A stretch of DNA of 40,120 nucleotides, from the NCBI GenBank assembly GCA_021780215.1, contig JAJXZD010000036.1, positions 1-40,120 of the forward strand. The letters are read 5' to 3'. The stretch is from Acidobacteriota bacterium (GTDB lineage: Bacteria; Acidobacteriota; Terriglobia; Acidiferrales; UBA7541). Positions 5,043-30,558 of this stretch are shown here, one piece after another. The notes beneath the pieces are model-generated. The model did no database searches and was not told the DNA's origin. It saw only the letters and a list, made by a program, of their open reading frames with translations. The translations under genes and the position numbers were made by a program. The stretch's first letter is position 1. Each line of letters begins with the position of its first letter.

Positions 5043-6017
5043 ATGCCCCGCTTGCCACAACAGCCCCCGCTGGACGGAATTCTGATCGTCAACAAGCCCC
5101 GCGGGAAGACTTCGCATGACGTGGTAGAAACGGTTCGCCGGCTGGCCGGTTTCCGCCAGATCGGCCATCTCGGCACGCTCGACCCACTGGCGACGGGCGT
5201 GCTCGTGCTGGCTCTGGGACGCGCCACTCGGCTGGCGCGATTCTACGCGGGACGGCGCAAGCGCTATGCCTGCGCGGTGAGGTTCGGCTTTGCCACCAAC
5301 ACCTACGACGCCGAAGGCGAGCCACTCTCCCAGGATTGCGCGCCCGTTCTCGACGCAGCGCAGTTGCAATCCCTGGCCGACGGGCTGACCGGAAAGATCC
5401 AGCAGATTCCTCCCGCCTTCTCCGCAAAAAAGATTGGCGGACGCCCCGCGCACGAGCTGGCACGCAAGCAGAAGCCGGTGTCCCTCTCGCCGATCGACGT
5501 GGAGGTGTACAAGTTTAGCCTCACGGGAATCGAAGGCTCTGTGGCTCGTTTCGCAGTTGAGTGCGGCGCGGGGACCTACGTTCGTTCGCTGGCCCACGAT
5601 CTTGGCAAGCTGCACGGAACGGGAGCGCATCTGGCGGAAATCGAGCGCACCGCTTCCGGAGAATTTACCCTGGACCAGGCCATTCCGCTCGAGGAACTGG
5701 CGGAGGACGCCAAGGTCGGCAAGCTGGCCTCGCGCGTGATTCCTCTGGAAAATCTGCTGACGGACCTTCCTCGTGCCGCGGTGCTCCCGATTGTCGAGCG
5801 GCGCATTCACCACGGGGCGAAGTTCAATATATCCCTGTCCCAGGTCCAGCCGGGAGTCACTCCGCAGGCGCACGGCGCGCCGGGCCAACTCGACTCCGGC
5901 GAATGGAAGCCCCTGCACTTGCGCGTGTTCAACCAGCACGGGCATCTCATAGCCATCGCCGAACCAGTCGTTCCCCGCACCTACCAGCCAGTCGTGGTCC
6001 TAGAAACAGCGCCCTGA
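5043..6017 (+). CDS. truB: tRNA pseudouridine(55) synthase TruB
   Basis: TruB isomerises uridine 55 in the T-loop of tRNAs to pseudouridine. The 324-aa protein carries the N-terminal LDGILIVNKPRGKTSHDVV motif and the catalytic motif GHLGTLDPLATGVLVL, whose Asp47 is the equivalent of the E. coli nucleophile. The RYxC-like strand (GRRKRYACAVRFG) and the QIPPAFSAKKIGGRPAHELAR thumb/binding region follow. The C-terminal part is a PUA-like RNA-binding domain. GGAGA lies about ten bases before the ATG. This is the last gene of the cluster; the next gene is convergent. Confidence 0.96.
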   Translation: MPRLPQQPPLDGILIVNKPRGKTSHDVVETVRRLAGFRQIGHLGTLDPLATGVLVLALGRATRLARFYAGRRKRYACAVRFGFATNTYDAEGEPLSQDCAPVLDAAQLQSLADGLTGKIQQIPPAFSAKKIGGRPAHELARKQKPVSLSPIDVEVYKFSLTGIEGSVARFAVECGAGTYVRSLAHDLGKLHGTGAHLAEIERTASGEFTLDQAIPLEELAEDAKVGKLASRVIPLENLLTDLPRAAVLPIVERRIHHGAKFNISLSQVQPGVTPQAHGAPGQLDSGEWKPLHLRVFNQHGHLIAIAEPVVPRTYQPVVVLETAP

Positions 6018-6091: not shown

Positions 6092-9000
6092 TCAGCGCTG
6101 CGCGGGAGGCGGTTGAGGAACCGGCTGCGGCGGCTGTTGCTGCGGCGGGGGCGCGGGCGCGGGGCGATTCGTCTCCGGCGTCGCTGGTCGCAGTCCACCG
6201 CCAATGATGCCGGCGCCTGTGCCTTCCAAGGCGCCCTGGCCCGCGTAGATCGTGTGATTTTCGCGCGGCATGTATCGCACCAGGCGCGGGGTGACCAGAA
6301 TCAGCAGCTCCTGATCCTGGTTTTGGACATTCTCGTTCTGCCCGAGCCAGCCAACGCCTGGGAGGCCGGCGATTCCAGGAGATCCGGTGATCGCATTCGT
6401 TACCTGGGATTGCAGAAAGCCGGCCAATGCGGCTGTCTTATTCTCTCTTACGCGCACGGTTTGTTTGACGGCCTCGTTGCTGATGACCGGAATCGAATTG
6501 TAGTTCTGGGAAGTCAGGCTGCTGATGTCGAAATTGAGTTCGAGGCTCACATCATTATCCGGGTGGATTCGCGGCGTCGCCTTGATCTTCAAACCCACGT
6601 CGATATATTCGATACCGGGAAATGGAATACCGGCGAGCGGGTTGGTAGGACCCACAAAGCTGGATGAGTTCAGGATGACGGTGGCGTCGTTTGAATTCTG
6701 GTTGGCCGTCGCTATGTCGGCTTTCCCGTCTCCATTGAAATCGGCCGTGGCGATGGAGACGGGCGCCTGATCCACCGGCAGCTCGAAATTCGGCCCGAAG
6801 AATCCCCCGCCCTGGCCCAGGAGGACGGACACGGCGTTGTCTGCCTCGTCGGACACCACGAGGTCGGAGATGCCGTCAATGTTGTAGTCACCGACGGCAA
6901 TGGCAGTGGGCGAGTTCCCGGCGGGAAAATCCCGCTGCGTGCCAGGGCTGAACGTGCCATTGCCGATAGCCGGATTTGCGGCGCTTGCGTTGCCCAGAAG
7001 AATCGAGACGGTATCGCCGGTATTGGCGGTCGTAGGCGCTCCATCGTTGGCGATCGCCAGGTCCATGATGCCGTCGCCGTTGAAATCACCGGTCGCTACG
7101 AAAACAGGCGTGTTTCCCGTCGCATAATCCGCGCGCGGCTGGAACGTGCCGTTCCCGTTGCCGAGGAAGACGGAAACTGAGTTATTCCCCGCGTCGGCCA
7201 CCGCCAGGTCTGGGTGTCCACTACCCGTAAATTGCATCGCGGCCAGGCCCGTTGGAGCAAATCCCGCCGGGAGCTGGAGAAGCCCCGGAGAAGCACTGAA
7301 AACGCCGCTGGTCGTGATGGAAAAGACCGTGATCGAACTGTCTGCCTGGTTGGCCACCGCAAGATCCACATTGCTGCCAGCCACTGCATTGTGAAAATTC
7401 GCTACCGCCAGGGCAACGGGCGTGTTGCCCGCCGTCGCAATGGCCGGCGCCTGAAAAGTGCCATCCCCGTTACCGAGCAGGATCATGACCGCGCCTGCCT
7501 TGGTGTTGGTGTTCGTGCCGGCCACGGCGAGGTCTTGGTGGCCGTCGCCATTAAAGTCATAGGCCGCCAATGCGGCTGGCTCGAAGCCCGCAGGCAATTG
7601 GATCAGCCCAGGCGTTTGGAACGTGCCGTCACCATTGCCCTGAAAGATGGAGATCGTGCCGTCGAGGCGATTGGCCACCGCCAGATCCACAATGGAGGTC
7701 GTCGTCTTATCATGAAAATAGGCGGCGACTATCGCTGAAGGAGATTTTCCCGCGGGATAATTTGTGGTGGGAAAATTTGCCTGGCCTACCCCGGGCACGC
7801 TCGCGCCAGTCCCTGCCATGCTGGCTGAATAGGTGGCGAGAGAAACGGGAATGCGGTCGCCCACGAAGAACGTGACGGGCTGCCCATCCTCGGCGCGAAG
7901 GAGCACGCGCCGCCCCTGCTTGACCATGGAGAGCATGGTCGCGAAGTTGGCCGTCGCCCCGGGGAGAGTTGCCAGAAAAGTGGTCATGCCACCGCCAAAC
8001 GCCACCACCGGAGGAAGCAGCGAACCGATTCCCAGCTGATTTGCGGCAACCAGGGACGCCAACTGGCTCGAACTCATGCCGGAGACAGAAGCCGGCAGCC
8101 CAAATATTTGATTGATGACATTGATGAGCGACTGTCCGCCCAGCTCCGCCTGCTGGATCTGCTGCGAACTAATGGAGAATACTTGCGAGGTCTGGGGGGG
8201 AATGATTCCAAGTTGGCGAGCGTAATTGCGGTCCACCTCAAGAATTTCGATTTCGAGAATCAGTTCGCCGACAGGCTTTTCGAGATCCTCGATCAGGTCG
8301 GAGGCAACGGCAATGGCCCGCGGCGAGGCCCGCAGCGTGAGCGTGTGGCTGCTTGCGTTGAGCTCGGAGCGCATCACACCGGTAATATCGCGAACCACGC
8401 GGAGCAACTCGGTCATCTGGTCCTGATTCTGCGAAGCGGGCAAAAGGATGGTCCTAACAAGGGACGGTTCATAGTCGCGCCGCTTTTGCGGCGTGTTATC
8501 CGTAACGAAAAACAGGCGCGGCGTGAGCGGCCGCCAGAAGGTGGCCGTCATGTCTCCCAGCAGCCGAGCCGCCGTGAGAAAGTCAACGTCATCGAGTCGA
8601 ACGCGCACAGTCCGGGGATGCAGATCCACGTCAAAGGCCACCTCGACGCCAAATTGCCGGGCCAGTTCCTCGTAGGCTCCCTGTGTATCGCCACGATAGT
8701 CGAGATTGTGCTTCCCCGCCTGATACGCCAGATGCACTTCTCCGGCGATAGCGGGGCCGTTGCTCTTGCGGACCTTTCCCGCTTGTGCAACGGCAAGCTC
8801 CACCATGCGCTCCCGAATCACACTGTTCAGCGGATCTAGATAGCTGGCGGCCAGCAATTGCTGGCGGGCTTCGGCGATGTGGCCGGAAATGGCATCTCGC
8901 TCGGCGGTGTCCATCTTGATCTGCACTAGATGGCTTCTTGCCATAGCCCGCATCAGCAAGTACTCGCGGTCGTTCGGCGCCCATCTCACCGCTTCGGAAT

Positions 9001-9256
9001 ATTTCTCATAGGCCGTCTGCCAGTCTTCCTCCTGCTCTGCTCGCAGGGCCTCCCTGTAGGCTTCCTTCGCCTTTTTGGCATCTGGCTTTGCGGCAGGCGC
9101 CAACGAGACCAGCGGCGCAGGCTCCTGAGCGGGCCGTAATTCTTGATTCTGCGATTGTGGGCGAGCCACATTCGAGAAAAAGAAAACGGCGAGCAGCGCG
9201 ACCGTCAAAGCCGCACCGCGCCATATATTCCAGATTGGCGAAATCAGCCTGCGCAT
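6092..9256 (-). CDS. Secretin with TPR N terminus and internal seven-bladed FG-GAP/VCBS propeller
   Basis: Secretins form outer-membrane pores for type II secretion, type IV pili and related machines. I chose ATG 9256 (1054 aa) because it gives a clean signal peptide (Arg-Arg, then a Leu/Val/Phe core and an Ala-Arg-Pro end); the frame continues 51 codons upstream without signal-like sequence. Order: TPR-like helices (about 50-150), an STN/N0-like domain, a secretin N1-like domain, then the secretin core starting GELILEIEILEVDRNYA and reaching FFVGDRIPVSLATY. There it is interrupted for about 360 residues (roughly 500-865) by seven propeller repeats, and resumes at YIDVGLKIKATPRIHPDND. Four repeats keep the calcium-type DxNxDGxxD loop (e.g. 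DFNGDGHQD, DFNGDGIMD). The tail is Pro/Gln-rich. No other secretion-system gene is nearby, so its machine is unknown. Confidence 0.88.
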   Translation of the reverse strand: MRRLISPIWNIWRGAALTVALLAVFFFSNVARPQSQNQELRPAQEPAPLVSLAPAAKPDAKKAKEAYREALRAEQEEDWQTAYEKYSEAVRWAPNDREYLLMRAMARSHLVQIKMDTAERDAISGHIAEARQQLLAASYLDPLNSVIRERMVELAVAQAGKVRKSNGPAIAGEVHLAYQAGKHNLDYRGDTQGAYEELARQFGVEVAFDVDLHPRTVRVRLDDVDFLTAARLLGDMTATFWRPLTPRLFFVTDNTPQKRRDYEPSLVRTILLPASQNQDQMTELLRVVRDITGVMRSELNASSHTLTLRASPRAIAVASDLIEDLEKPVGELILEIEILEVDRNYARQLGIIPPQTSQVFSISSQQIQQAELGGQSLINVINQIFGLPASVSGMSSSQLASLVAANQLGIGSLLPPVVAFGGGMTTFLATLPGATANFATMLSMVKQGRRVLLRAEDGQPVTFFVGDRIPVSLATYSASMAGTGASVPGVGQANFPTTNYPAGKSPSAIVAAYFHDKTTTSIVDLAVANRLDGTISIFQGNGDGTFQTPGLIQLPAGFEPAALAAYDFNGDGHQDLAVAGTNTNTKAGAVMILLGNGDGTFQAPAIATAGNTPVALAVANFHNAVAGSNVDLAVANQADSSITVFSITTSGVFSASPGLLQLPAGFAPTGLAAMQFTGSGHPDLAVADAGNNSVSVFLGNGNGTFQPRADYATGNTPVFVATGDFNGDGIMDLAIANDGAPTTANTGDTVSILLGNASAANPAIGNGTFSPGTQRDFPAGNSPTAIAVGDYNIDGISDLVVSDEADNAVSVLLGQGGGFFGPNFELPVDQAPVSIATADFNGDGKADIATANQNSNDATVILNSSSFVGPTNPLAGIPFPGIEYIDVGLKIKATPRIHPDNDVSLELNFDISSLTSQNYNSIPVISNEAVKQTVRVRENKTAALAGFLQSQVTNAITGSPGIAGLPGVGWLGQNENVQNQDQELLILVTPRLVRYMPRENHTIYAGQGALEGTGAGIIGGGLRPATPETNRPAPAPPPQQQPPQPVPQPPPAQR

Positions 9257-9476: not shown

Positions 9477-9488
9477 GGGAGGTGTCAC

Positions 9489-9926
9489 ATGGCGCAAGCC
9501 ATATCTGGCAAGCATCATTGGGGGGAATTTTGCCGTCTGGGTTCAATTTCTGGCAAAGCTTCGCGGAGGCACGATGCTCTGCTGGCAGTTTGCCGCTGGG
9601 CGCTCGTGGCCCTGATTCCCATTCTGCTGGTGCTCCCCCCCGCACTGGTCCTGGCGCAGGGTGCGCCGCGCGTCACCAGCGTGGATCCGGCGTCGGGCAA
9701 GGTGAACGACACAATCGCGATCACCGGGGAGAGCCTCGGCCGTTCATCTGTCTCAGCCGTGTTTCTCTCCGACGACAAGTTGGATTACAAGGCTTCCATC
9801 ACCGACCAGAGCGCGACCAAGATTGTCATCAAAGTCCCACAGGTCAAGCCCGGCGAATATCACGTCTCAATTCAGATGGGACCCGCTATCTACATCCAAC
9901 CGGTGGTCTTCACGGTTCAGCGGTAG
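9489..9926 (+). CDS. Secreted IPT/TIG-domain protein
   Basis: This 145-aa protein has a long basic N region, a hydrophobic segment (about residues 36-56, ending ALVLA) and one IPT/TIG immunoglobulin-like domain recognisable from PRVTSVDPASGKVNDTIAIT and the closing KPGEYHVSIQMG strands. TIG domains occur in surface and secreted proteins as binding or spacer modules; a specific function cannot be inferred. The start has a strong GGGAGGTG ribosome-binding site five bases upstream, supporting ATG 9489 despite the long n-region. It is transcribed divergently from the secretin, and its leader carries a hairpin repeat. Confidence 0.78.
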   Translation: MAQAISGKHHWGEFCRLGSISGKASRRHDALLAVCRWALVALIPILLVLPPALVLAQGAPRVTSVDPASGKVNDTIAITGESLGRSSVSAVFLSDDKLDYKASITDQSATKIVIKVPQVKPGEYHVSIQMGPAIYIQPVVFTVQR

Positions 9927-10039
9927 GCTGCCGCACGCTGATTGGGGCAGCCATAATTCCACCACCGCGGCGTCGCGCCCGTCCTGAGCGCCTTGAGAGT
10001 GAACGTGTCGGGTTTTGCTGCGCGCGGGAATATCAGACC

Positions 10040-11035
10040 ATGACCGATTGCCGCGAACAGAGGATTGCGAAAAGAAGCTTTCTCGCCTGTCGCCTTCTCC
10101 TTGCATTCCTGGCAGTGCTGCCCGGATGGGCTTCGGCGCGGGCCTGGGGCTGCCGCGGGCACGAAGTAATCGCGATAATCGCCGAGGCACACCTCACGCC
10201 GCATGCCCGGTCAGCGGCGCTGCGCATCCTTTCCAACAATCCAATCGCCAGGGAACTCCCCCGGTCCTGCCCTTCCTCTGGCGAGGATGCGTTCATGGAT
10301 GCTTCCACATGGGCTGACGACATCCGCAGCTTTCGCCCGGACACAACGCATTGGCATTTCATTGATATTCCCCTGGCCGCGCACAATGCTGACCTTTGGC
10401 GCTTCTGCCCGCCGAAGGATGGCTGTATTCTCACCGCCCTACCAGCCGAGTTGGACATTCTTCGAAATCCGAGGGCCAGCCCCGGGGCGCGTGCGGAGGC
10501 GTTGCGTTTTGTCATCCACCTTGCAGGAGATATCCATCAGCCGCTTCATGCCGCCACCAACGATGACCGGGCCGGAAACTGCGTGCCAGTCGCATATTTT
10601 GGCCGCGTTCCCCAGCTAACCGACCCGTGGCGCGGCGTTTACGCCCCCAATCTACATCAGGTATGGGACGTCGAAATAATTCGCCGGTGGTCACAGTGGC
10701 GTTCGGCAGAACAAAGCGCGCGGGAGCTGGACGCACAGTTCCGGTCAAGCGCCGCGGAGTGGCTTTCTGAACCCGCAGACTTCGCCGCTTGGGCATGGGA
10801 GACACATGAACTGGCCGACTACGTCGCCTACGGTCGGCTCCCCGAGCCGATTGCCATTGCGGCGCCGCGCCGCGTCACGACGTGCGCGGATGATAATAAT
10901 GTCTCCTCGCGGATGCTCCATCTGCACGAACGCCTCTCCCGTGAATACCAAAATGCAGCCGTTCCTGTGGTGAAGCTTCAATTGGCCAGGGCCGGGGTCC
11001 GTCTCGCCGCGCTCTTGAACTCCATCTGGCCATAG
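10040..11035 (+). CDS. Secreted S1/P1-type zinc nuclease
   Basis: S1/P1 nucleases are tri-zinc enzymes that hydrolyse single-stranded DNA/RNA and 3'-nucleotides outside the cytoplasm. The 331-aa product starts with a signal peptide ending SARA, so cleavage would expose Trp36 as the new N terminus, which is a zinc ligand in this family. All nine expected ligands are present with family spacing: Trp36, His41, Asp93, His106, His160, Asp164, His170, His206 and Asp210 (motifs WGCRGHE, THWHFID, HLAGDIHQPLH, NLHQVWD). The frame is open far upstream across the IPT/TIG gene in another phase; ATG 10040 is chosen because the signal peptide begins there. It probably serves nutrient or phosphate scavenging. 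Confidence 0.92.
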   Translation: MTDCREQRIAKRSFLACRLLLAFLAVLPGWASARAWGCRGHEVIAIIAEAHLTPHARSAALRILSNNPIARELPRSCPSSGEDAFMDASTWADDIRSFRPDTTHWHFIDIPLAAHNADLWRFCPPKDGCILTALPAELDILRNPRASPGARAEALRFVIHLAGDIHQPLHAATNDDRAGNCVPVAYFGRVPQLTDPWRGVYAPNLHQVWDVEIIRRWSQWRSAEQSARELDAQFRSSAAEWLSEPADFAAWAWETHELADYVAYGRLPEPIAIAAPRRVTTCADDNNVSSRMLHLHERLSREYQNAAVPVVKLQLARAGVRLAALLNSIWP

Positions 11036-22892: not shown

Positions 22893-25877
22893 TTGCGACG
22901 ATCAGCACCGTATTTGGCCCGCTGGTGCCGAGGTATCCGATGGACCGCCTGCGTAGCTCTACTCGTTGCGGCTGTGTCCGCGGCACAAGGCCAGGAACCT
23001 TCTATCGAAGGTCAAGACGTGGCAGAGGTGCGCGTACTCGACGACGCGGGCCGAGCCATCACGCAGAAACTGCCTGCCCTTGAGCTGCATTCTGGAATGC
23101 CTTTCAATTTTTCCGCCGAACGCGCTAGCTTACGCGCCCTCTACCGTACCGGCGACTACTCCGATATCCGGGTGACAGCCTGGCCCGTGGCGGGAGGGCT
23201 TCGCGTCGATTTCGTGGCGCAGCGAAACTACTACAACAACGTAATCCGCGTCGTGGGCCTGACCCCTCCTCCTACGGAAGCTACCGCACTGGCGGCACTG
23301 CGGCTCAGCCTTGGCGAACCCTTTCGGAAGAGCACTCTCACAGATGCGATCGCGCGACTGCAGGACACGCTTCGCGAAGACGGCTTCTATCAGGCAAAGA
23401 CAGTTCCCTCCCTCGAGCCCCACGAAGCGACAAGGCAGATGGATGTGACCGTGACGGTCATTCCCGGGCCGCGTGCGCGCGTCGGATCGATTCACATCGA
23501 GAATCAAACGCCCTACTCGAATGGCTATCTCCTGCGCCGGCTGAAGTTATCGAACAAAGACTCCGTGACGACCGCGCGGCTCTCCCACGCCACGCGGCGA
23601 CTGAAGCAGTATCTGGTGAATCAGGGCTATCTCGGAGCCGTGGTGCTTCTGATCCCCGGAAATTATGATGCCGCCTCGAACGGACTGCCACTGCGCCTAT
23701 CGGTTTCGGCGGGCCCGCGCGTGCGGGTCGAGGTCAGCGGCGCGCGCCTAAGCAAATCCCAACAGCGAAAGTTGTTGCCCATTTATGCGGAAGGCGCCGT
23801 GGACGAAGACCTCTTGCAGGAGGGCCGGCGCAACATTCGCAGCTACTTTCAAAACCAGGGATACTTTGACGCGCGCGTCGCGGTTGGCTCGCGACAGGAA
23901 GGCCCCAAAGCCGAGCGGGTGATCAGCTACGAGATTTCCCGAGGGGACCGCTATCGCCTGGCTGGAATTTCCTTCACCGGAAACCGATATTTTTCAACTG
24001 ATCTGCTCACCAGACGCATGCAACTCCAGCCGGCCTCCTTCGCTTCGAATGGAAAATTCAGCCAGCAGCTGATGCGCGACGATGCAGACTCGATCCGCTC
24101 GATCTATCTAGCGAATGGCTTTCACGATGTGCAGGTCTCCTCGACGGTGGACGACCATTACCAGGGCAAAAAAAGCAACCTGTTCGTCTCCTTCCACATT
24201 GTCGAGGGATCCCAGACTCGCATCGCCGATCTGACCATCGAGGGCAACAAGGCCCTCTCCACCTCCATTCTCCTAGCCGTCACGGGCTCCACGCCCGGGC
24301 AGCCGTATTCGGAATCGGGGGTGGCCAGCGACCGGAATAACATTCTGGCGCTCTACTATAACGAAGGCTTCCCCGAAGCCCGCTTTCGCGACGAGGCGCT
24401 GCCCGGTAGCGCACCAAATAAAATGCGCCTGATCTACCACATCACGGAAGGGCGCCAGATCAAGGTCGCGAAAGTCCTCCTGACCGGCTACCAATACACT
24501 CACCCCGGAATCATCGCCCGTCAGGTGGAGATTCATTCCGGGGCGCCGCTGCGCGAGGGGGACATCGCCGGAACGCAGCGCAACCTCTACAATCTCGGTG
24601 TCTTTACCCAGGTGCAGGTTGCGCCTCAAAATCCAGACGGCTCGGACCCACAGAAGAATGTCGTCGTAGCGGTCCAGGAGGGGCAGCGGTACACGATCGG
24701 CTACGGATTCGGCTTCGAAGTGCAGCGGATTGCCGGCGGCTCGAACAATCCCACTGGAACAACCATCGGCGCCAGCCCCCGCGGTATTTTTGAAATCTCA
24801 CGCGCCAACATGTTCGGCCGCGCACAAACTCTTTCCTTTAAGGCCCGAGGCAGCACGCTCGAATATCGCGCGGCGCTGGAATACTCCGCCGCCAACTTCT
24901 TGTCTCAGCCGAGCCTGACACTACAAGCCACTGCCTTCGCTGACAAAACCCAGGACATCAACACGTTCACCTCGACGCGCCTGGAAGGCGGCCTGCAACT
25001 GGTTGAGCAGCTCTCTCCCTCTAGTTCCCTTCTCTATCGCTATTTCTACCGGCAAGTGAAGGCGTCCAATATCGTCGCCACGATCAATCCGGAACAGATC
25101 CCTCTGCTCAGCCAGACGACGCTGGTCTCCGGATTCGGAATCACCTATGCGCGCGACCGCCGGGACAATCCCGCCGATGCTTCGCACGGAACCTTTAATA
25201 CGGTGGACTTCAGCGACGCGATTCGCGCCATCGGATCGAGCGCCAGTTTCCTTAAGGGTTTCTTCCAGAACTCCTCCTACTACTCTCTCGGCCGGTCTTT
25301 CGTTTTCGCGCGCTCGGTGCGCTTCGGTGTGGAGCAACCCATGGGCACTACCGTTGCTCCGAGCGACCCCAGCTGCATTCCCGCCACGAGCGGAGCGATT
25401 TCCTGCATTACGATTCCCCTTCCGGAGCGATTTTTCGCCGGCGGTGGCACATCGCTGCGTGGCTTCGGATTGAACCAGGCTGGGCCGCGCGATCCGGTCA
25501 CGGGCTTTCCCATTGGCGGACTCGCCTTGCTCGTGTTCAACCAGGAGCTGCGGTTTCCGATGAAGCTTCCCTGGGTCGGGAACCGCCTGGGCGGAACCGT
25601 CTTTTATGACGGCGGCAATGTATACAACGATCTGTACCACATCTCCTTCGCCTGGAAGTCGCCATCGACTACGAACCTGAGCTATTTCTCGCACACTGTC
25701 GGCTTTGGTTTGCGATATCCCACACCCATCGGGCCTGTCCGCATAGACTTCGGCTATCAGTTGAACCCGGCGCTTTATCAGGCCACGTATACGCCCGCAG
25801 GCTCTACGACTCCCGTAACCCAAAACTTTCGTCTGCCGCATTTCGGGTTTTTCTTCGATATAGGACCGGTGTTCTGA
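22893..25877 (+). CDS. Omp85-family outer-membrane protein (TamA/BamA-like) with about seven POTRA domains
   Basis: Omp85 proteins insert or translocate proteins at the outer membrane using periplasmic POTRA domains and a 16-stranded barrel. The 994-aa product starts at TTG 22893 (GGAG ten bases upstream), with a signal peptide ending SAAQG. I count seven POTRA-like units of 75-85 residues between about 33 and 605, each closing on the pattern LRxxGY/F ... V(x)V(x)G (for example YLVNQGYLGA, YFQNQGYFDA, YLANGFHDV). The barrel runs from GYGFGFEVQ to the terminal Phe of FFFDIGPVF and contains the conserved loop GGGTSLRGFGLNQAGPRD (RGF motif). Its stop overlaps the next start (TGATG). The downstream TamB-like gene argues for a TamA-type role, although seven POTRAs exceeds the three of E. 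coli TamA. Confidence 0.93.
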   Translation: MRRSAPYLARWCRGIRWTACVALLVAAVSAAQGQEPSIEGQDVAEVRVLDDAGRAITQKLPALELHSGMPFNFSAERASLRALYRTGDYSDIRVTAWPVAGGLRVDFVAQRNYYNNVIRVVGLTPPPTEATALAALRLSLGEPFRKSTLTDAIARLQDTLREDGFYQAKTVPSLEPHEATRQMDVTVTVIPGPRARVGSIHIENQTPYSNGYLLRRLKLSNKDSVTTARLSHATRRLKQYLVNQGYLGAVVLLIPGNYDAASNGLPLRLSVSAGPRVRVEVSGARLSKSQQRKLLPIYAEGAVDEDLLQEGRRNIRSYFQNQGYFDARVAVGSRQEGPKAERVISYEISRGDRYRLAGISFTGNRYFSTDLLTRRMQLQPASFASNGKFSQQLMRDDADSIRSIYLANGFHDVQVSSTVDDHYQGKKSNLFVSFHIVEGSQTRIADLTIEGNKALSTSILLAVTGSTPGQPYSESGVASDRNNILALYYNEGFPEARFRDEALPGSAPNKMRLIYHITEGRQIKVAKVLLTGYQYTHPGIIARQVEIHSGAPLREGDIAGTQRNLYNLGVFTQVQVAPQNPDGSDPQKNVVVAVQEGQRYTIGYGFGFEVQRIAGGSNNPTGTTIGASPRGIFEISRANMFGRAQTLSFKARGSTLEYRAALEYSAANFLSQPSLTLQATAFADKTQDINTFTSTRLEGGLQLVEQLSPSSSLLYRYFYRQVKASNIVATINPEQIPLLSQTTLVSGFGITYARDRRDNPADASHGTFNTVDFSDAIRAIGSSASFLKGFFQNSSYYSLGRSFVFARSVRFGVEQPMGTTVAPSDPSCIPATSGAISCITIPLPERFFAGGGTSLRGFGLNQAGPRDPVTGFPIGGLALLVFNQELRFPMKLPWVGNRLGGTVFYDGGNVYNDLYHISFAWKSPSTTNLSYFSHTVGFGLRYPTPIGPVRIDFGYQLNPALYQATYTPAGSTTPVTQNFRLPHFGFFFDIGPVF

Positions 25878-26572
25878 TGGCTCGCTTTGCTTTCATTTTC
25901 GGTCTCGCGGCGCTCTTCGCAAGCCTTGGGGCGGGACACTGCTTCGCCGCCAAAAGCGCCCGCACCAGGCAGGATGTTCATGCGCCGGGTGGGACGATCG
26001 CGATTGACGGCATCGCCGCCCGCATAGAAGACGACATCATTACCGAAAGCCAACTCCGGGAGCTCGCTGCGTTTCAGATTCTTGTGGACGGCCGTGCCAA
26101 GTCTCGCGCCGAGCTGATCCGCGAGCTAGCCGATCAATGGATCGTGCGGGGCGAAGCCAGCGCGGCTAAGTTCGAACAGCCATCCAACGAGGACGTAGAC
26201 CACGCCATCGCCGAACTGGAAAACCAGTTCTCCTCGCCCGCGGAATTCGAGAAGCGCCGCGCCGCCGCAGGAATTAGCCAGGCGGCCGTGCGCCGCCTGG
26301 TTGCGCAACAGCTCTACCTCTCGCGCTTCCTCGATTTTCGCTTCCGGCCGGCCGCGGATGTTAGTCCGGAGCAGGTCCGCGATTACTACGACCGCGAATT
26401 TGCGCCACAGTTGCAAGCGCGCGGCGAGAAGGTGCCACCTCTCGAAAGCGTGCAGGACACCATTCGGGAGGTCCTTGTCCAGCGGGCGATAGACTCGCGT
26501 GCCCGGCAATGGCTGGACGAGACTCGCAAGGGCTTGAAAATTGACGTGATCCCGGACGGGGAGGCCCCATGA
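25877..26572 (+). CDS. Periplasmic SurA-like chaperone lacking a PPIase domain
   Basis: The 231-aa protein has a signal peptide ending CFAA and the layout of SurA N- and C-terminal chaperone pieces without the parvulin domain. The IDGIAARIEDDIITESQLRE strand-helix start, the ELIRELADQWIVRGEA helix, the long helical arm with QQLYLSRFLDFRFRP, VSPEQVRDYYDREF, and the closing helix VQDTIREVLVQRAIDSRARQ all match SurA/PpiD-like chaperone domains. SurA guards unfolded outer-membrane proteins in the periplasm. It overlaps both neighbours by one and four bases, so its level is tied to the Omp85 and TamB-like proteins; it may deliver substrates to them (inference). Confidence 0.82.
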   Translation: MARFAFIFGLAALFASLGAGHCFAAKSARTRQDVHAPGGTIAIDGIAARIEDDIITESQLRELAAFQILVDGRAKSRAELIRELADQWIVRGEASAAKFEQPSNEDVDHAIAELENQFSSPAEFEKRRAAAGISQAAVRRLVAQQLYLSRFLDFRFRPAADVSPEQVRDYYDREFAPQLQARGEKVPPLESVQDTIREVLVQRAIDSRARQWLDETRKGLKIDVIPDGEAP

Positions 26573-29500
26573 GCCGCTTCCGCAAACGCTTGATCTGGAT
26601 CATCCTTGGAACAGTGGCCATCCTGGCGCTCCTTTTGGGCCATGCGCTAAGGAAAGGCCTGGCTGACCCTTGGTTGCGCCGCGCCCTTCTCGCGCAAATA
26701 GAGGTTCGGACCGGTGCGCGCGCCGAAATGACCGGCTTTCGTTTCCAGGCATGGCACCTGCGTGTGGAAATCCGCGGACTGACCCTGCACGGGCGCGAGA
26801 CTTCCGGCGCCCCTCCTCTCTTTCGCGCCAGCCGCGTGGAGGCGCAGGTCCGCATCGTGTCCTTCTTCGGAAGGAAGATCGCGCTCAATGAGCTGGTGGT
26901 GGATAAGCCGCAACTCTCCGTCAGAATTGACTCGGACGGTCGAAGCAATATCCCCACGCCGCGGAAGGCTCCTGCCTCCGGCGCCTGGCGGGATACCTTG
27001 TTTCGCTTGCAGGTGGGACATCTGACTTTGCGGGATGGTTCGGTGAATTTCAACGACCGCCGCACGCCCCTCTCCCTCAATGGCCGGAACATCGATTTCG
27101 CACTCGCCTACAGCGCCCCGGCAGGCGCTGACGGCTCCTATGCCGGCACACTGAACATTCGTCAGATGTTCCTTGCATTGGGGCGCTATGCGCCATTTCG
27201 CTCCGACCTGTCAGCCAGATTTACTCTGTATCGCAACGCTTTCGAGCTGGATGATTTCTCCTGGCGGCTGCCCCATTCAAATCTGCAAGCCCGCGCCACA
27301 CTGGCAAGCTTTTCCCGGCTGGACTGGCAATTCCACTACCGGGGCTCTCTCTCTCTCTCTGATGTGGCTACGATCTTCCGGCGCACCGATGTGCCGGGCG
27401 GTTTGGTCGAATTCTCGGGAAAGGCGCACTACTCTGCGGCCGGGATCACGGCTGGCAAGCGCGGTAGCGATAACCCAAGCCCCGCGCAGTCATGGACCGC
27501 CAGCGGCTATTTCCACGCCCGGGACATTGTCCTGCCCTATGATTGGTTCCACGCCAAGGATCTGACCACCTGGGGAGATTATGAAGTCGCGTCAAGCCGG
27601 CTGACGGTTCCCGACCTTGAGATTCAGGCGCTGGGCGGAGCCGCTACTGGAAATCTGGCGCTGGATTTTCCCGACATGGCATTCCGGGTAGAGACCAGGA
27701 TGCGAGGCGCCAGCCTGGCCAGGATTTTTGCCGCACTGGACAACCCCAACTTTCCGGTCGAGACCCTCCACTGGGATGCCGCCGTGGACGTGGACGCGGT
27801 CAACACGTGGAATGCGAATTTCCGGCACTTCCGCACAAACGGCAAGATGCGCTGGGCTCCTCCCGGAAGCCCTGCCAAGGGGATGATCCCTGCAACTGCT
27901 CGCATTGACTATGACTACACGCAGGACCGGCGCACTTTCTCGATCTCTCCGAGCAAAATTACTCTGCCAAAGGCGCGCATTCGCATGGACGGAGCTCTTG
28001 GCGCACAAAACTCCGACCTGGATGTGAAATTCCACGCGGACGACCTTCTCGAATGGAATGATTTCATCAACGCCATCCGAGGCCCGCATGCGGCCCACGA
28101 GCAAATTGGAGGGCGAGCGGATTGGAGCGGGAGGATTCTCGGTCCGTTGGCTGGACCCGCCTTCCGGGGCCATGTGGATGCGGCCAGTGTATCGTACGGC
28201 CGGCTCTTCTGGGACCAGTTTGCAGCCGACATGGAATACTCGCCCGACGGTCTCCACCTGGCAGAAGCCACGGTCCGGCACGGGAGGGCTGTCGCAAGTC
28301 TCACCTTCCAGATGGACTTCGATGGTGCGTGGAGCTTTCGGCCCGAAAATCATTGGGCGCTCGATGCGAACATCCAGGACGTTCCTATCTCGGACCTGCA
28401 GGAGGCTATCCAGTCCGGCTATCCGGTCCAGGGACAATTGACCGGAAAAGTCCACGGCGACGGGACTCGCGCATCGCCTGTCTTCGACGCCACGCTCGAT
28501 GCCCGGAATTTACAGGTAAAAAGCCTCTACTTCGATCACATGCATGCGCAGCTGCATGCGGGCAATGGCGAGGTCAGGCTAGCCGACGCAACCTTGCGCA
28601 GGGGAACCTCGGACATCAGCGGCACCCTGGCCTACCAGTTGGCGACTGGGACCATGCAGTTCGACGTCACCGGAGCAGGCATATCGCTCAGCTCTATCAG
28701 CATGCTCGAGTCATCGACCCTTCCCCTCGCGGGCCAACTCGACTTTCATCTGCGCGGGCATGGCCCGTTGCAAACCTCCGTGGCTCAGGGTGATTTTCGC
28801 ATCCGCAATTTGCGGCTCGGCTCGGAAGCGGAGGGCGACTTCCGCGGCCGGCTCGTCTCGGACGGCCAAACGGCCCGCCTGACTCTTACCGCCGTCCCCA
28901 CCCCCGATAGCCTGCAAGGAGATGTAACGATCGAGCTGACGGGAGACCGCCGAATCGTCGGGAGTGTGTCCGTGCGGCAGTTCAATCTGGACCCGCTCAT
29001 CACAGCGGGCCTTCACCTCCACCAACTGACCGGCCATGGCGCCGCCGATGCCCTCTTCACCATCTCCGGAAATCTGCGCCAGCCCGATTCCATCGAAGTT
29101 CAAGCAGATATCGCGCGAATTTCCTTCAACTACGAATTGGTCCAGCTCGCCAACGATCAGGATATCCACCTGACCTATCGCCGCAACGAGGTCTCCATCG
29201 AGCAGGCGCGGCTCCGCGGACCCGACACCGATTTTAAAATCAGCGGCTCTGCTCGTTTCGACGGAAATCGGCCGCTCCATTTTGCGGTCTCCGGCGCGGT
29301 CAACCTGCGGCTCGTCAAAGGGCTTTTCCCTGATCTGGATGGAAAGGGCCGGGCGGACGTGAACGTGGGGATTGGCGGGAACCTGTCACAGCCGGAATTG
29401 ACCGGAAGGGCACGCGTCAGCGGCGCATCCATCAGTTACGCGGATTTTCCCGTGGGGCTAACGGGACTCGACGGAGAGTTCTCTTTTGACAAGAGCCGCC

Positions 29501-30558
29501 TCGTCTTCGACAAGATCACGGCGCAAGCTGGTGGAGGGCAATTAACCCTGAGCGGGAGTCTCGCGTATGGCGAAGGGCCGCTGCGATATCAGATCTCGGC
29601 TGCCACGTCGCAGGTTCGCATCCGCTATCCCGCCGGAATAAGTTGGCTGGCGGGAGGCACCCTGGAACTCTCGGGAACGAAAGACGCGGCCTTATTGACC
29701 GGACAAGTGCGCGTCCAGCGGCTGCTGTTCGCGCAGGGCGTTGACGTGGCATCGTTCTTCGCTGCCGCCGCGCAGTCCTCGCCAGGCCCAACCTCTGCTT
29801 CGCCGTTTCTGCAGAACCTGGCGTTCGACGTCGAGGGGCGTGCGGACCCCGGCGCGCGCATCGAGTGGACCGGCGCGCACGTTGATATGGAAGGGGACGT
29901 CCGGCTGCGCGGCACTTGGGACCGCCCCGTCATCCTCGGGCATATCCACCTGCTCGGGGGAGAAATGCCTTTCCGGGGCAACACGTTCGATCTCACGCGC
30001 GGAGACATCAACTTCTCCAATCCCTTCCGTCTCGATCCTGTTCTGGACGTAGAGCTGGCCTCGACCATCAACCAGTACCAAGTGACTGTAGATTTCTCCG
30101 GTCCCGCCAGCCACCTCTCAATGAACTACCGCTCGGATCCTCCGTTGCCGGACTCGGAAATCGTCGCCTTGCTTGCCCTGGGCAGTCCCGGCGAAGGTAA
30201 CGCCCTCCTGGGACAGCCCGGCGCGGCGCAGAACTACGGCGCCACAGCGCTGCTCTCCGAAGCCATTTCGAGCGGTATCGGCGGCAGAATCGAGCACCTG
30301 TTCGGAATTAACCAGTTCCGCATTGACCCCTTTCTGGCCGGGACGGCCACCGAGTCCAATGCGGCTGCACGCGTGACCATTCAAAAACAGGTCACGCGCG
30401 AGCTGACGATCACCTACTCGACAAATGCAGCCACCTCCAACCAATATCAGATGGTTGAAGTGGATTACGCGGTCAAGAACAACCTGTCCGTGGAATTTCT
30501 GCGAGACATCAACGGCACATACGGCTTCGACATCAAGTGGATCAAACACTTCAAGTAA
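26569..30558 (+). CDS. TamB-like translocation and assembly module protein (DUF490)
   Basis: TamB-like proteins are very long periplasmic beta-taco proteins anchored in the inner membrane, working with TamA-type Omp85 proteins or in phospholipid transport. The 1329-aa product has an N-terminal membrane anchor (IILGTVAILALLLGHAL) and AsmA-like early repeats (PWLRRALLAQIEVRTGA). It continues through many short beta-repeat segments to the DUF490 C terminus, marked by LPDSEIVALLALGSPGEG, LSEAISSGIGGRIEHLFGIN and the final VEFLRDINGTYGFDIKW. The start ATG overlaps the SurA-like stop (ATGA). A 16-base CT repeat (27345-27360) lies inside the gene. The convergent modC ends 13 bases after its stop. 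Confidence 0.92.
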   Translation: MSRFRKRLIWIILGTVAILALLLGHALRKGLADPWLRRALLAQIEVRTGARAEMTGFRFQAWHLRVEIRGLTLHGRETSGAPPLFRASRVEAQVRIVSFFGRKIALNELVVDKPQLSVRIDSDGRSNIPTPRKAPASGAWRDTLFRLQVGHLTLRDGSVNFNDRRTPLSLNGRNIDFALAYSAPAGADGSYAGTLNIRQMFLALGRYAPFRSDLSARFTLYRNAFELDDFSWRLPHSNLQARATLASFSRLDWQFHYRGSLSLSDVATIFRRTDVPGGLVEFSGKAHYSAAGITAGKRGSDNPSPAQSWTASGYFHARDIVLPYDWFHAKDLTTWGDYEVASSRLTVPDLEIQALGGAATGNLALDFPDMAFRVETRMRGASLARIFAALDNPNFPVETLHWDAAVDVDAVNTWNANFRHFRTNGKMRWAPPGSPAKGMIPATARIDYDYTQDRRTFSISPSKITLPKARIRMDGALGAQNSDLDVKFHADDLLEWNDFINAIRGPHAAHEQIGGRADWSGRILGPLAGPAFRGHVDAASVSYGRLFWDQFAADMEYSPDGLHLAEATVRHGRAVASLTFQMDFDGAWSFRPENHWALDANIQDVPISDLQEAIQSGYPVQGQLTGKVHGDGTRASPVFDATLDARNLQVKSLYFDHMHAQLHAGNGEVRLADATLRRGTSDISGTLAYQLATGTMQFDVTGAGISLSSISMLESSTLPLAGQLDFHLRGHGPLQTSVAQGDFRIRNLRLGSEAEGDFRGRLVSDGQTARLTLTAVPTPDSLQGDVTIELTGDRRIVGSVSVRQFNLDPLITAGLHLHQLTGHGAADALFTISGNLRQPDSIEVQADIARISFNYELVQLANDQDIHLTYRRNEVSIEQARLRGPDTDFKISGSARFDGNRPLHFAVSGAVNLRLVKGLFPDLDGKGRADVNVGIGGNLSQPELTGRARVSGASISYADFPVGLTGLDGEFSFDKSRLVFDKITAQAGGGQLTLSGSLAYGEGPLRYQISAATSQVRIRYPAGISWLAGGTLELSGTKDAALLTGQVRVQRLLFAQGVDVASFFAAAAQSSPGPTSASPFLQNLAFDVEGRADPGARIEWTGAHVDMEGDVRLRGTWDRPVILGHIHLLGGEMPFRGNTFDLTRGDINFSNPFRLDPVLDVELASTINQYQVTVDFSGPASHLSMNYRSDPPLPDSEIVALLALGSPGEGNALLGQPGAAQNYGATALLSEAISSGIGGRIEHLFGINQFRIDPFLAGTATESNAAARVTIQKQVTRELTITYSTNAATSNQYQMVEVDYAVKNNLSVEFLRDINGTYGFDIKWIKHFK
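27345..27360 (+). repeat. CT dinucleotide run (CT)8 inside the tamB-like gene
   Basis: Eight CT units in a row encode Ser-Leu-Ser-Leu-Ser within the AsmA-like N-terminal part of the TamB-like protein. A change in unit number would shift the reading frame. Such tracts are phase-variable in some bacteria; nothing else here shows that this one varies. Confidence 0.7.

What the first reader, a model, noticed from the sequence alone, without database searches (positions are those of the whole stretch)
6092..9256. Seven-bladed FG-GAP propeller inserted in the outer-membrane domain of a secretin
The secretin core is split between FFVGDRIPVSLATY and YIDVGLKIKATPRI, two segments normally joined by a short loop, by about 360 residues with seven FG-GAP/VCBS repeats. 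Seven is the count for a closed beta-propeller, so the insert can fold on its own and its ends are close together, as a loop insertion requires. Four repeats keep calcium-type DxNxDGxxD loops; repeats 1, 3 and 4 are degraded. In a secretin ring of a dozen or more subunits this would give a crown of calcium-binding propellers at the pore, perhaps a gate, cap or adhesin. Secretins and FG-GAP repeats are known families; the crown and its role are inference.
Basis: partly seen in the sequence, partly recalled or inferred. Interest (0 to 1): 0.88.

Follow-up and report, generated by a model that had tools for sequence, protein, structure and literature searches.

The report
Propeller built into a secretin's gate
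A family of soil bacteria carries an outer-membrane channel protein whose central gate loop holds a complete seven-bladed, integrin-like propeller in every subunit; the same kind of insertion also occurs at the same spot in an unrelated branch, so the channel's gate apparently gained a new working part that nobody seems to have described.

Summary
Window 6092-9256 (-) encodes a 1054-aa secretin split by about 407 aa that hold seven FG-GAP repeats. It is not an assembly join: all 71 intact insert-bearing orthologs from one Acidobacteriota family (Ca. Acidiferrales) carry exactly seven repeats, next to truB wherever flanking sequence was examined. AlphaFold2 gives a confident propeller of about 28 strands (pLDDT about 90).

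The insert lies between the two glycine hinges of the secretin's central gate (equivalent to XcpD G466 and G496; both Gly in 71/71 orthologs). It is a gate-tip insertion, not a membrane-side or apical loop.

New here: syntenic orthologs without the insert (sister families, plus one nested genus that probably lost it); a second, separately placed insertion of a seven-bladed propeller at the same gate tip in two genomes of another family, whose congeners have a plain 22-aa gate; and Ig-like domains nested in the propeller in two sub-clades.

Best reading: a secretin whose gate loops carry ligand-binding heads, probably outside the pore mouth, since 14-15 heads cannot fit in the lumen. Anatomy is strongly supported; position, ring and function are inference. 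No report found in the open-access library. New variant of a known kind.

The parts
6092..9256 (-). Whole gene: secretin with gate-inserted propeller, 1054 aa, ATG at 9256; convergent with truB
   Evidence: synteny
9155..9256 (-). Signal-peptide-like N terminus (residues 1-34, MRRLISPIWNIWRGAALTVALLAVFFFSNVARPQ)
   Evidence: sequence reading; inference
8777..9085 (-). TPR-like helical region (residues about 58-160)
   Evidence: weak NCBIfam hits to TPR proteins, 66-158; the paralog has TPR hits
8282..8704 (-). Periplasmic N0/STN-like and Secretin_N-like domains (residues about 185-325)
   Evidence: homology to orthologs with a Secretin_N hit; assignment in the window protein by alignment only
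7829..8281 (-). First half of the secretin pore domain, ending ...FFVGDRIPVSLATY (residues 326-476)
7859..7861 (-). Gate hinge glycine 1 (G466; equivalent to XcpD G466)
   Evidence: alignments; XcpD gate 466-496 in PMC10550240; Gly in 71/71 orthologs
7775..7828 (-). Lead linker (residues 477-494, G/S/P-rich)
6659..7774 (-). Seven-bladed FG-GAP propeller (residues about 495-866). Repeat hits: 504-561, 558-614, 611-670, 666-719, 715-785, 781-832, 830-882; Ca-type loops in repeats 2, 5, 6, 7
   Evidence: AlphaFold2; Foldseek
7751..7768 (-). Velcro strand: first strand of the insert (PTTNYP, residues 497-502), strand 4 of the last blade
   Evidence: repeat phase and predicted strands
6608..6658 (-). 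Tail linker back to the gate (residues 867-883, ...NPLAGIPFPGIE)
   Evidence: resembles the gate end of insert-free orthologs (QAPFPAFQ)
6275..6607 (-). Second half of the secretin pore domain (residues 884-994), Pfam Secretin positions 51-169
   Evidence: solved-structure matches
6593..6595 (-). Gate hinge glycine 2 (G888; equivalent to XcpD G496)
6095..6244 (-). Pro/Gln-rich C-terminal tail (residues 1005-1054)
5043..6017 (+). truB, convergent neighbour; end of nusA-infB-ylxP-rbfA-truB cluster that marks the orthologous site

Best explanation
This is an outer-membrane secretin subunit whose central-gate hairpin carries a whole integrin-type seven-bladed FG-GAP beta-propeller on linkers. Shown: the fold of the propeller by prediction, its position between the gate hinges, strict seven-fold repeat number, orthologous sites with and without the insert, a second insertion in another family at the same tip, and Ig-like domains nested in the propeller in two sub-clades. 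Inferred: subunits form a 12-15-meric channel as other secretins do; because that many propellers cannot fit in the lumen, the gate hairpins are held or swing outward and the heads sit over the extracellular mouth as a ring. There they act as a ligand- or surface-binding head (adhesin or receptor) and as a lid, coupling binding outside to gate movement. Confidence in the anatomy is about 0.95; the figure given here is for the outward, ligand-binding mechanism.
For: Gate mapping: XcpD's central gate is residues 466-496 between two pivot glycines (PMC10550240); phmmer aligns these with the orthologs' hinge glycines (XcpD chain 432+34=466 and 462+34=496), and both are Gly in 71/71 orthologs. Seven repeats in 71/71 inserts, while unrelated FG-GAP proteins fetched here have 1-25. 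Confident AlphaFold2 propeller, pLDDT about 90, velcro-closed; nearest folds include integrin alpha heads and, by profile, integrins and the lectin PVL, which bind ligands outside cells. Ig-like domains sit between blades 3-4 (He_PIG) or 1-2 (Big_2) in two sub-clades without changing the blade count; such domains are typical of surface and secreted proteins (general knowledge). The propeller diverges faster than either secretin half in 82% of orthologs (medians 42% vs 49 and 47%). Second insertion in genus g78 at the same gate tip, again seven blades, in two genomes. Volume: about 370 aa x 15 is near 7.4e5 A^3, more than a 90 A wide, 96 A high lumen (about 6.1e5 A^3; pIV dimensions).
Against: No experimental data. 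Oligomer state, membrane position and exit of the heads were not tested. The secretin half had low confidence in the model. A propeller reaching outside must pass the barrel during assembly. One nested genus (g4) lost the insert and kept the secretin, so the head is not essential to the channel. The sequence itself does not show on which side of the gate the head lies.
Confidence: 0.45

Rival explanations
1. The propellers lie on the periplasmic side or in the vestibule and act as a bulky plug or substrate filter for the channel, replacing the thin gate tips by a solid stopper.
For: In closed secretins the gate loops point to the pore centre and the gate seals the channel; a large domain at each tip would obstruct it. 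The linkers on either side are short, about 15-20 aa.
Against: 14-15 heads exceed the volume of the lumen (estimate dimensions), so they would have to spill into the periplasm past the N3 ring. Fast divergence and nested Ig domains fit an exposed head better than a packed plug.
Confidence: 0.25
2. Tethered cargo or cargo mimic: these genomes encode many free-standing FG-GAP proteins, and the gate propeller is a captured former export substrate that now docks cargo or partner propellers at the gate.
For: Free seven-bladed FG-GAP proteins exist (L097, L098, L164) and share blade register with the gate propellers; G318's propeller is as close to a free protein (mean blade score 102.8) as to the gate propellers of the window's family (102.2).
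Against: No evidence that this secretin exports FG-GAP proteins; the shared register may only reflect common descent of such propellers.
Confidence: 0.12
3. The gene is no longer a channel: the secretin part only anchors a propeller adhesin at the outer membrane, without a ring or working gate.
For: It stands alone beside translation genes, not in a secretion operon; the genome has two further secretins, a PilQ-like and a TPR-secretin, for its pilus-type machines.
Against: Both gate hinges are invariant and the secretin halves are more conserved than the propeller, which fits a working pore domain. Insert-free orthologs at the same site are ordinary secretins.
Confidence: 0.12
4. Assembly artefact: an FG-GAP gene was joined into a secretin gene.
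For: The window comes from a draft metagenome bin (246 contigs).
Against: The same in-frame architecture occurs in 71 intact orthologs from separate assemblies, with halves and propeller diverged together.
Confidence: 0.005

Closest known systems
Secretin family (PF00263): GspD/XcpD of type II secretion, PilQ, pIV, RcpA
   Same: Pore-domain halves match Secretin and solved GspD, PilQ, RcpA and pIV chains; central-gate hinge glycines kept; periplasmic N domains in front.
   Different: The gate loop of about 31 residues holds a further domain of about 370 residues; scores are far below the equivalog cut-offs of GspD and PilQ; the gene is outside any secretion operon.
Top (cap) gate of Vibrio-type T2SS secretins
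   Same: An optional extra element in a secretin gate region, scattered in phylogeny and dispensable (PMC10550240).
   Different: Lies in another, apical loop and is a simple pair of beta strands of tens of residues; here the central-gate loop is used and a complete globular domain is inserted.
FG-GAP / integrin-alpha-type and PVL-lectin-type seven-bladed propellers
   Same: Repeat motif, DxNxDGxxD calcium-type loops, seven blades, velcro closure; best profile and fold matches include integrin alpha and PVL.
   Different: Here the propeller is embedded in a channel's moving part, in one copy per subunit of a presumed ring; calcium loops are variable.
PilY1, the tip adhesin of type IV pili
   Same: A calcium-dependent adhesin working at a secretin-based machine, with a beta-propeller by general knowledge (papers found; abstract of PMC8833165 on calcium and adhesion).
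   Different: A separate protein carried on the pilus tip, not part of the secretin; no sequence comparison was made here.

Membership tests
Secretin superfamily | Secretin pore domain detected by its profile | tested here: met
   PF00263 92.7 bits against cut-off 27.5; the hit covers profile 51-169 because the insert splits the domain
Secretin superfamily | Central gate flanked by two hinge glycines | tested here: met
   G466 and G888 equivalent to XcpD G466/G496; 71/71 orthologs
Secretin superfamily | The two halves form one pore domain | tested here: inconclusive
   Insert-free syntenic orthologs join the halves directly by a 25-aa loop, but the AlphaFold2 model of the secretin part was low-confidence
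Secretin superfamily | 12-15-meric ring in the outer membrane | not testable with these tools
   no multimer prediction or experiment available
T2SS GspD (TIGR02517) / PilQ (TIGR02515) models | Score above curated cut-off | tested here: not met
   76.7 against 351.35 and 71.1 against 284.35 bits
FG-GAP seven-bladed beta-propeller | FG-GAP repeats above cut-off, seven in number | tested here: met
   PF13517 135.2 and PF01839 83.1 bits; seven repeats
FG-GAP seven-bladed beta-propeller | Propeller fold | tested here: met
   AlphaFold2 pLDDT about 90 over the insert, about 28 strands; Foldseek to propellers, TM on target up to 0.76
FG-GAP seven-bladed beta-propeller | Calcium-type loops in the repeats | tested here: inconclusive
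   Four of seven in the window; 22-50 of 71 orthologs per blade; binding itself not testable
Vibrio-type top gate | Extra element in the apical loop of the pore domain | tested here: not met
   The insert lies between the central-gate hinges, not in the apical region

The most novel reading that the evidence does not exclude
A secretin that displays its own receptor or adhesin heads through its pore: each subunit's central-gate hairpin is permanently or reversibly turned outward and carries an integrin-like propeller (in some lineages with Ig-like domains added), so that ligand binding at the cell surface is mechanically linked to opening of the channel. The design arose at least twice at the same gate tip.
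Probability: 0.3. Interest if true: 0.9.

Novelty: new variant of a known kind. Interest (0 to 1): 0.78.

Why it matters
The central gate is the sealing element of secretins, and small changes in it make cells leaky or stop secretion (PMC10550240, PMC8563730). Here a family of bacteria has kept a 40-kDa domain in every gate loop since its common ancestor, and another lineage has the same arrangement at the same spot. That shows the gate tip can carry a folded module, gives natural pairs with and without it (same gene, same neighbours) for direct comparison, and raises a testable question: whether a secretin can be a surface receptor or adhesin as well as a channel. It also offers a natural precedent for attaching binding domains to a large pore.

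Tried and rejected
Assembly chimera: rejected, the architecture recurs across dozens of assemblies. Variable repeat number in the longer inserts (550-681 aa): rejected, they also have seven repeats plus Ig-like domains. Deciding whether the g78 propeller was transferred from the window's family or captured from a free FG-GAP protein: unresolved, blade-register scores are equal. Deeper alignment for the secretin half from viral contigs: the alignment offered no searchable stretch. Relatives in other phyla: not systematically searched; the one scan of all genome contigs used short exact patterns and found only L094 and L095 as whole-architecture relatives, and centring a search on a Planctomycetota locus was not accepted. 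Literature: searches for secretin with FG-GAP, with beta-propeller, with gate/insertion/propeller and with Acidobacteria returned no title or abstract on this architecture. Rfam: no hit in the window.

Full report
WHAT IS THERE. Window 9256->6092 (-) is one open frame of 1054 aa in a metagenome-assembled genome of 2.97 Mb, 93% complete; its nearest named relatives are 'Candidatus Acidiferrales' bacteria of the Acidobacteriota (L094, L095, 62-64% identity; taxonomy). It begins with a signal-like peptide, then a TPR-like stretch, periplasmic N-type domains, and the secretin pore domain. Pfam sees Secretin only in the C-terminal part (93 bits, profile 51-169) and FG-GAP repeats (135 and 83 bits) in front of it. 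The pore domain is broken between residues 476 and 884.

SEVEN REPEATS, ALWAYS. A repeat profile built from the window's own repeats and iterated over relatives finds seven repeats in the window protein. All 89 genomes of the same family hold relatives of the protein. From these, 75 open frames with both halves could be extracted: 71 have an insert, every one with exactly seven repeats above 8 bits; four have none. Inserts run from 369 to 681 aa. The long ones (nine proteins) still have seven repeats, plus about 150-190 aa between repeats 3 and 4, or about 275 aa between repeats 1 and 2; in the three scanned these are Ig-like domains, He_PIG and Big_2. By contrast, unrelated FG-GAP reading frames fetched here have from 1 to 25 repeats, with 7 and 13 among the commonest. 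The phase is that of a velcro-closed propeller: the insert opens with a fourth strand and its last repeat ends after the third. AlphaFold2 on 16 sequences gives pLDDT about 90 over the insert and about 28 strands; Foldseek matches seven-bladed propellers, integrin alpha heads among them, and the profile matches a secreted esterase, the lectin PVL, cartilage acidic protein 1 and integrins.

WHERE IT IS INSERTED. In the P. aeruginosa secretin XcpD the central gate is residues 466-496, between two pivot glycines, and converges on the pore centre (PMC10550240); pIV has the same Gate 1 with hinge glycines (PMC8563730). Aligning the insert-free ortholog L137 with XcpD (PDB 5wln) puts its GER glycine on XcpD chain residue 432 and its DLG glycine on 462; adding the 34-residue signal peptide gives 466 and 496 (and for the C half). 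In the window these are G466 and G888. Both are glycine in all 71 insert-bearing orthologs. The insert is thus at the tip of the central-gate loop. The gate's own ends are kept on both sides as linkers.

SAME SITE WITH AND WITHOUT. The gene is convergent with truB at the end of nusA-infB-ylxP-rbfA-truB in the window, in relatives with the insert, in genus g4 without it, and in the sister families f2 and f3 without it, wherever flanking sequence allowed a check. So the insert-free genes are true orthologs. The g4 gate reads TPTVVDPNLLPLLGPQLQAPFPAFQ. In the tree of the secretin core the insert is confined to family f1, and g4 lies inside f1 (f1 97/91; inner clade 98/97), so one gain at the base of f1 and one loss in g4 is the simplest history (g4 is on a long branch). 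The genome's own TPR-secretin paralog has no insert.

A SECOND INSERTION. A junction-spanning query (last two blades plus C half) over 399 genomes of the class found the architecture in f1 and in one genome of family f7, G318. A profile search of 237 f7 genomes added G723 of the same genus. Both have seven repeats in the gate and are 54% identical to each other. Their congeners G215 and G374 have orthologs (55-56% identity over the N part) with a plain 22-aa gate...[32 protein letters not shown]...; in G318 the propeller falls between YPVLTSGYMG and YSPPPAFNYEDLG. In the tree G318 groups with these f7 proteins (100/99), and three changes of state are forced. The secretin therefore received the propeller separately in f7. 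Whether the propeller was transferred from an f1 gate or taken from a free FG-GAP protein cannot be told: blade-register scores are 102.2 and 102.8. No further case appeared in phylum samples or in 348 genomes of family f11 (strict thresholds, and no positive control inside that family).

GENOMIC SETTING. The genome has three secretins over the Pfam cut-off: a PilQ-like one with AMIN domain, a TPR-secretin, and this one. It has a pilB-pilT-pilC-pilS type cluster and a second T2SSE/T2SSF pair. The propeller secretin sits in none of them.

HOW IT MAY WORK. Shown by sequence: gate position, intact hinges, one propeller per subunit, linkers. Inferred: if 14-15 subunits form a ring, the heads occupy about 7.4e5 A^3 (370 aa x 110 Da x 1.21 A^3/Da x 15), more than the whole lumen of a 90 A wide and 96 A high secretin (about 6.1e5 A^3, dimensions of pIV). 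So they cannot all sit at the closed gate; either the gates stand outward and the heads form a ring over the mouth, or the heads spill into the periplasm. The first is favoured by the faster divergence of the propeller, by the nested Ig-like domains, and by the ligand-binding nature of its nearest folds. The likely job is binding (surface, polymer or partner) combined with closing the mouth. None of this has been tested.

VERDICT. It is a new variant of a known family, not a new kind of system. The open-access library held no report of it under the terms tried; subscription papers and preprints were not searched.

Noticed in passing
L060, L055, L077 and related g2 loci (L057, L059, L062, L064, L066, L079): Ig-like domains are nested inside the gate propeller: He_PIG between blades 3 and 4 (L060, L055), Big_2 between blades 1 and 2 (L077), without changing the seven-blade count; the others carry inserts of matching size and place but were not scanned.
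   Followed up: partly
L151:3295-6618 (G318) and L189 (G723): Secretins of another Terriglobia family with their own seven-bladed gate propeller, absent from congeners.
   Followed up: yes
L071 and L072 (genus g4, genomes of 2.6-2.8 Mb): Syntenic orthologs without the propeller, nested in the insert-bearing family; apparent loss in smaller genomes.
   Followed up: partly
L136:7874-10264 (-): A TPR-secretin paralog of the same genome with a weak cohesin-like C-terminal match, next to smpB; insert-free relatives of it occur across the class.
   Followed up: no
L097, L098, L164: Free-standing FG-GAP proteins with exactly seven repeats that share blade order with the gate propellers; L096 and L099 have 13-14, perhaps two propellers.
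   Followed up: partly
window 22893-30555 (+): Omp85/POTRA protein followed by a small unknown ORF and a TamB-type protein: a TamA/TamB-like pair.
   Followed up: no
window 9489-9923 (+): Small secreted-looking IPT/TIG-domain protein divergent from the secretin; it overlaps the frame of an S1/P1 nuclease ORF (9482-11032). It gave no match beside the secretin in the relatives checked.
   Followed up: partly
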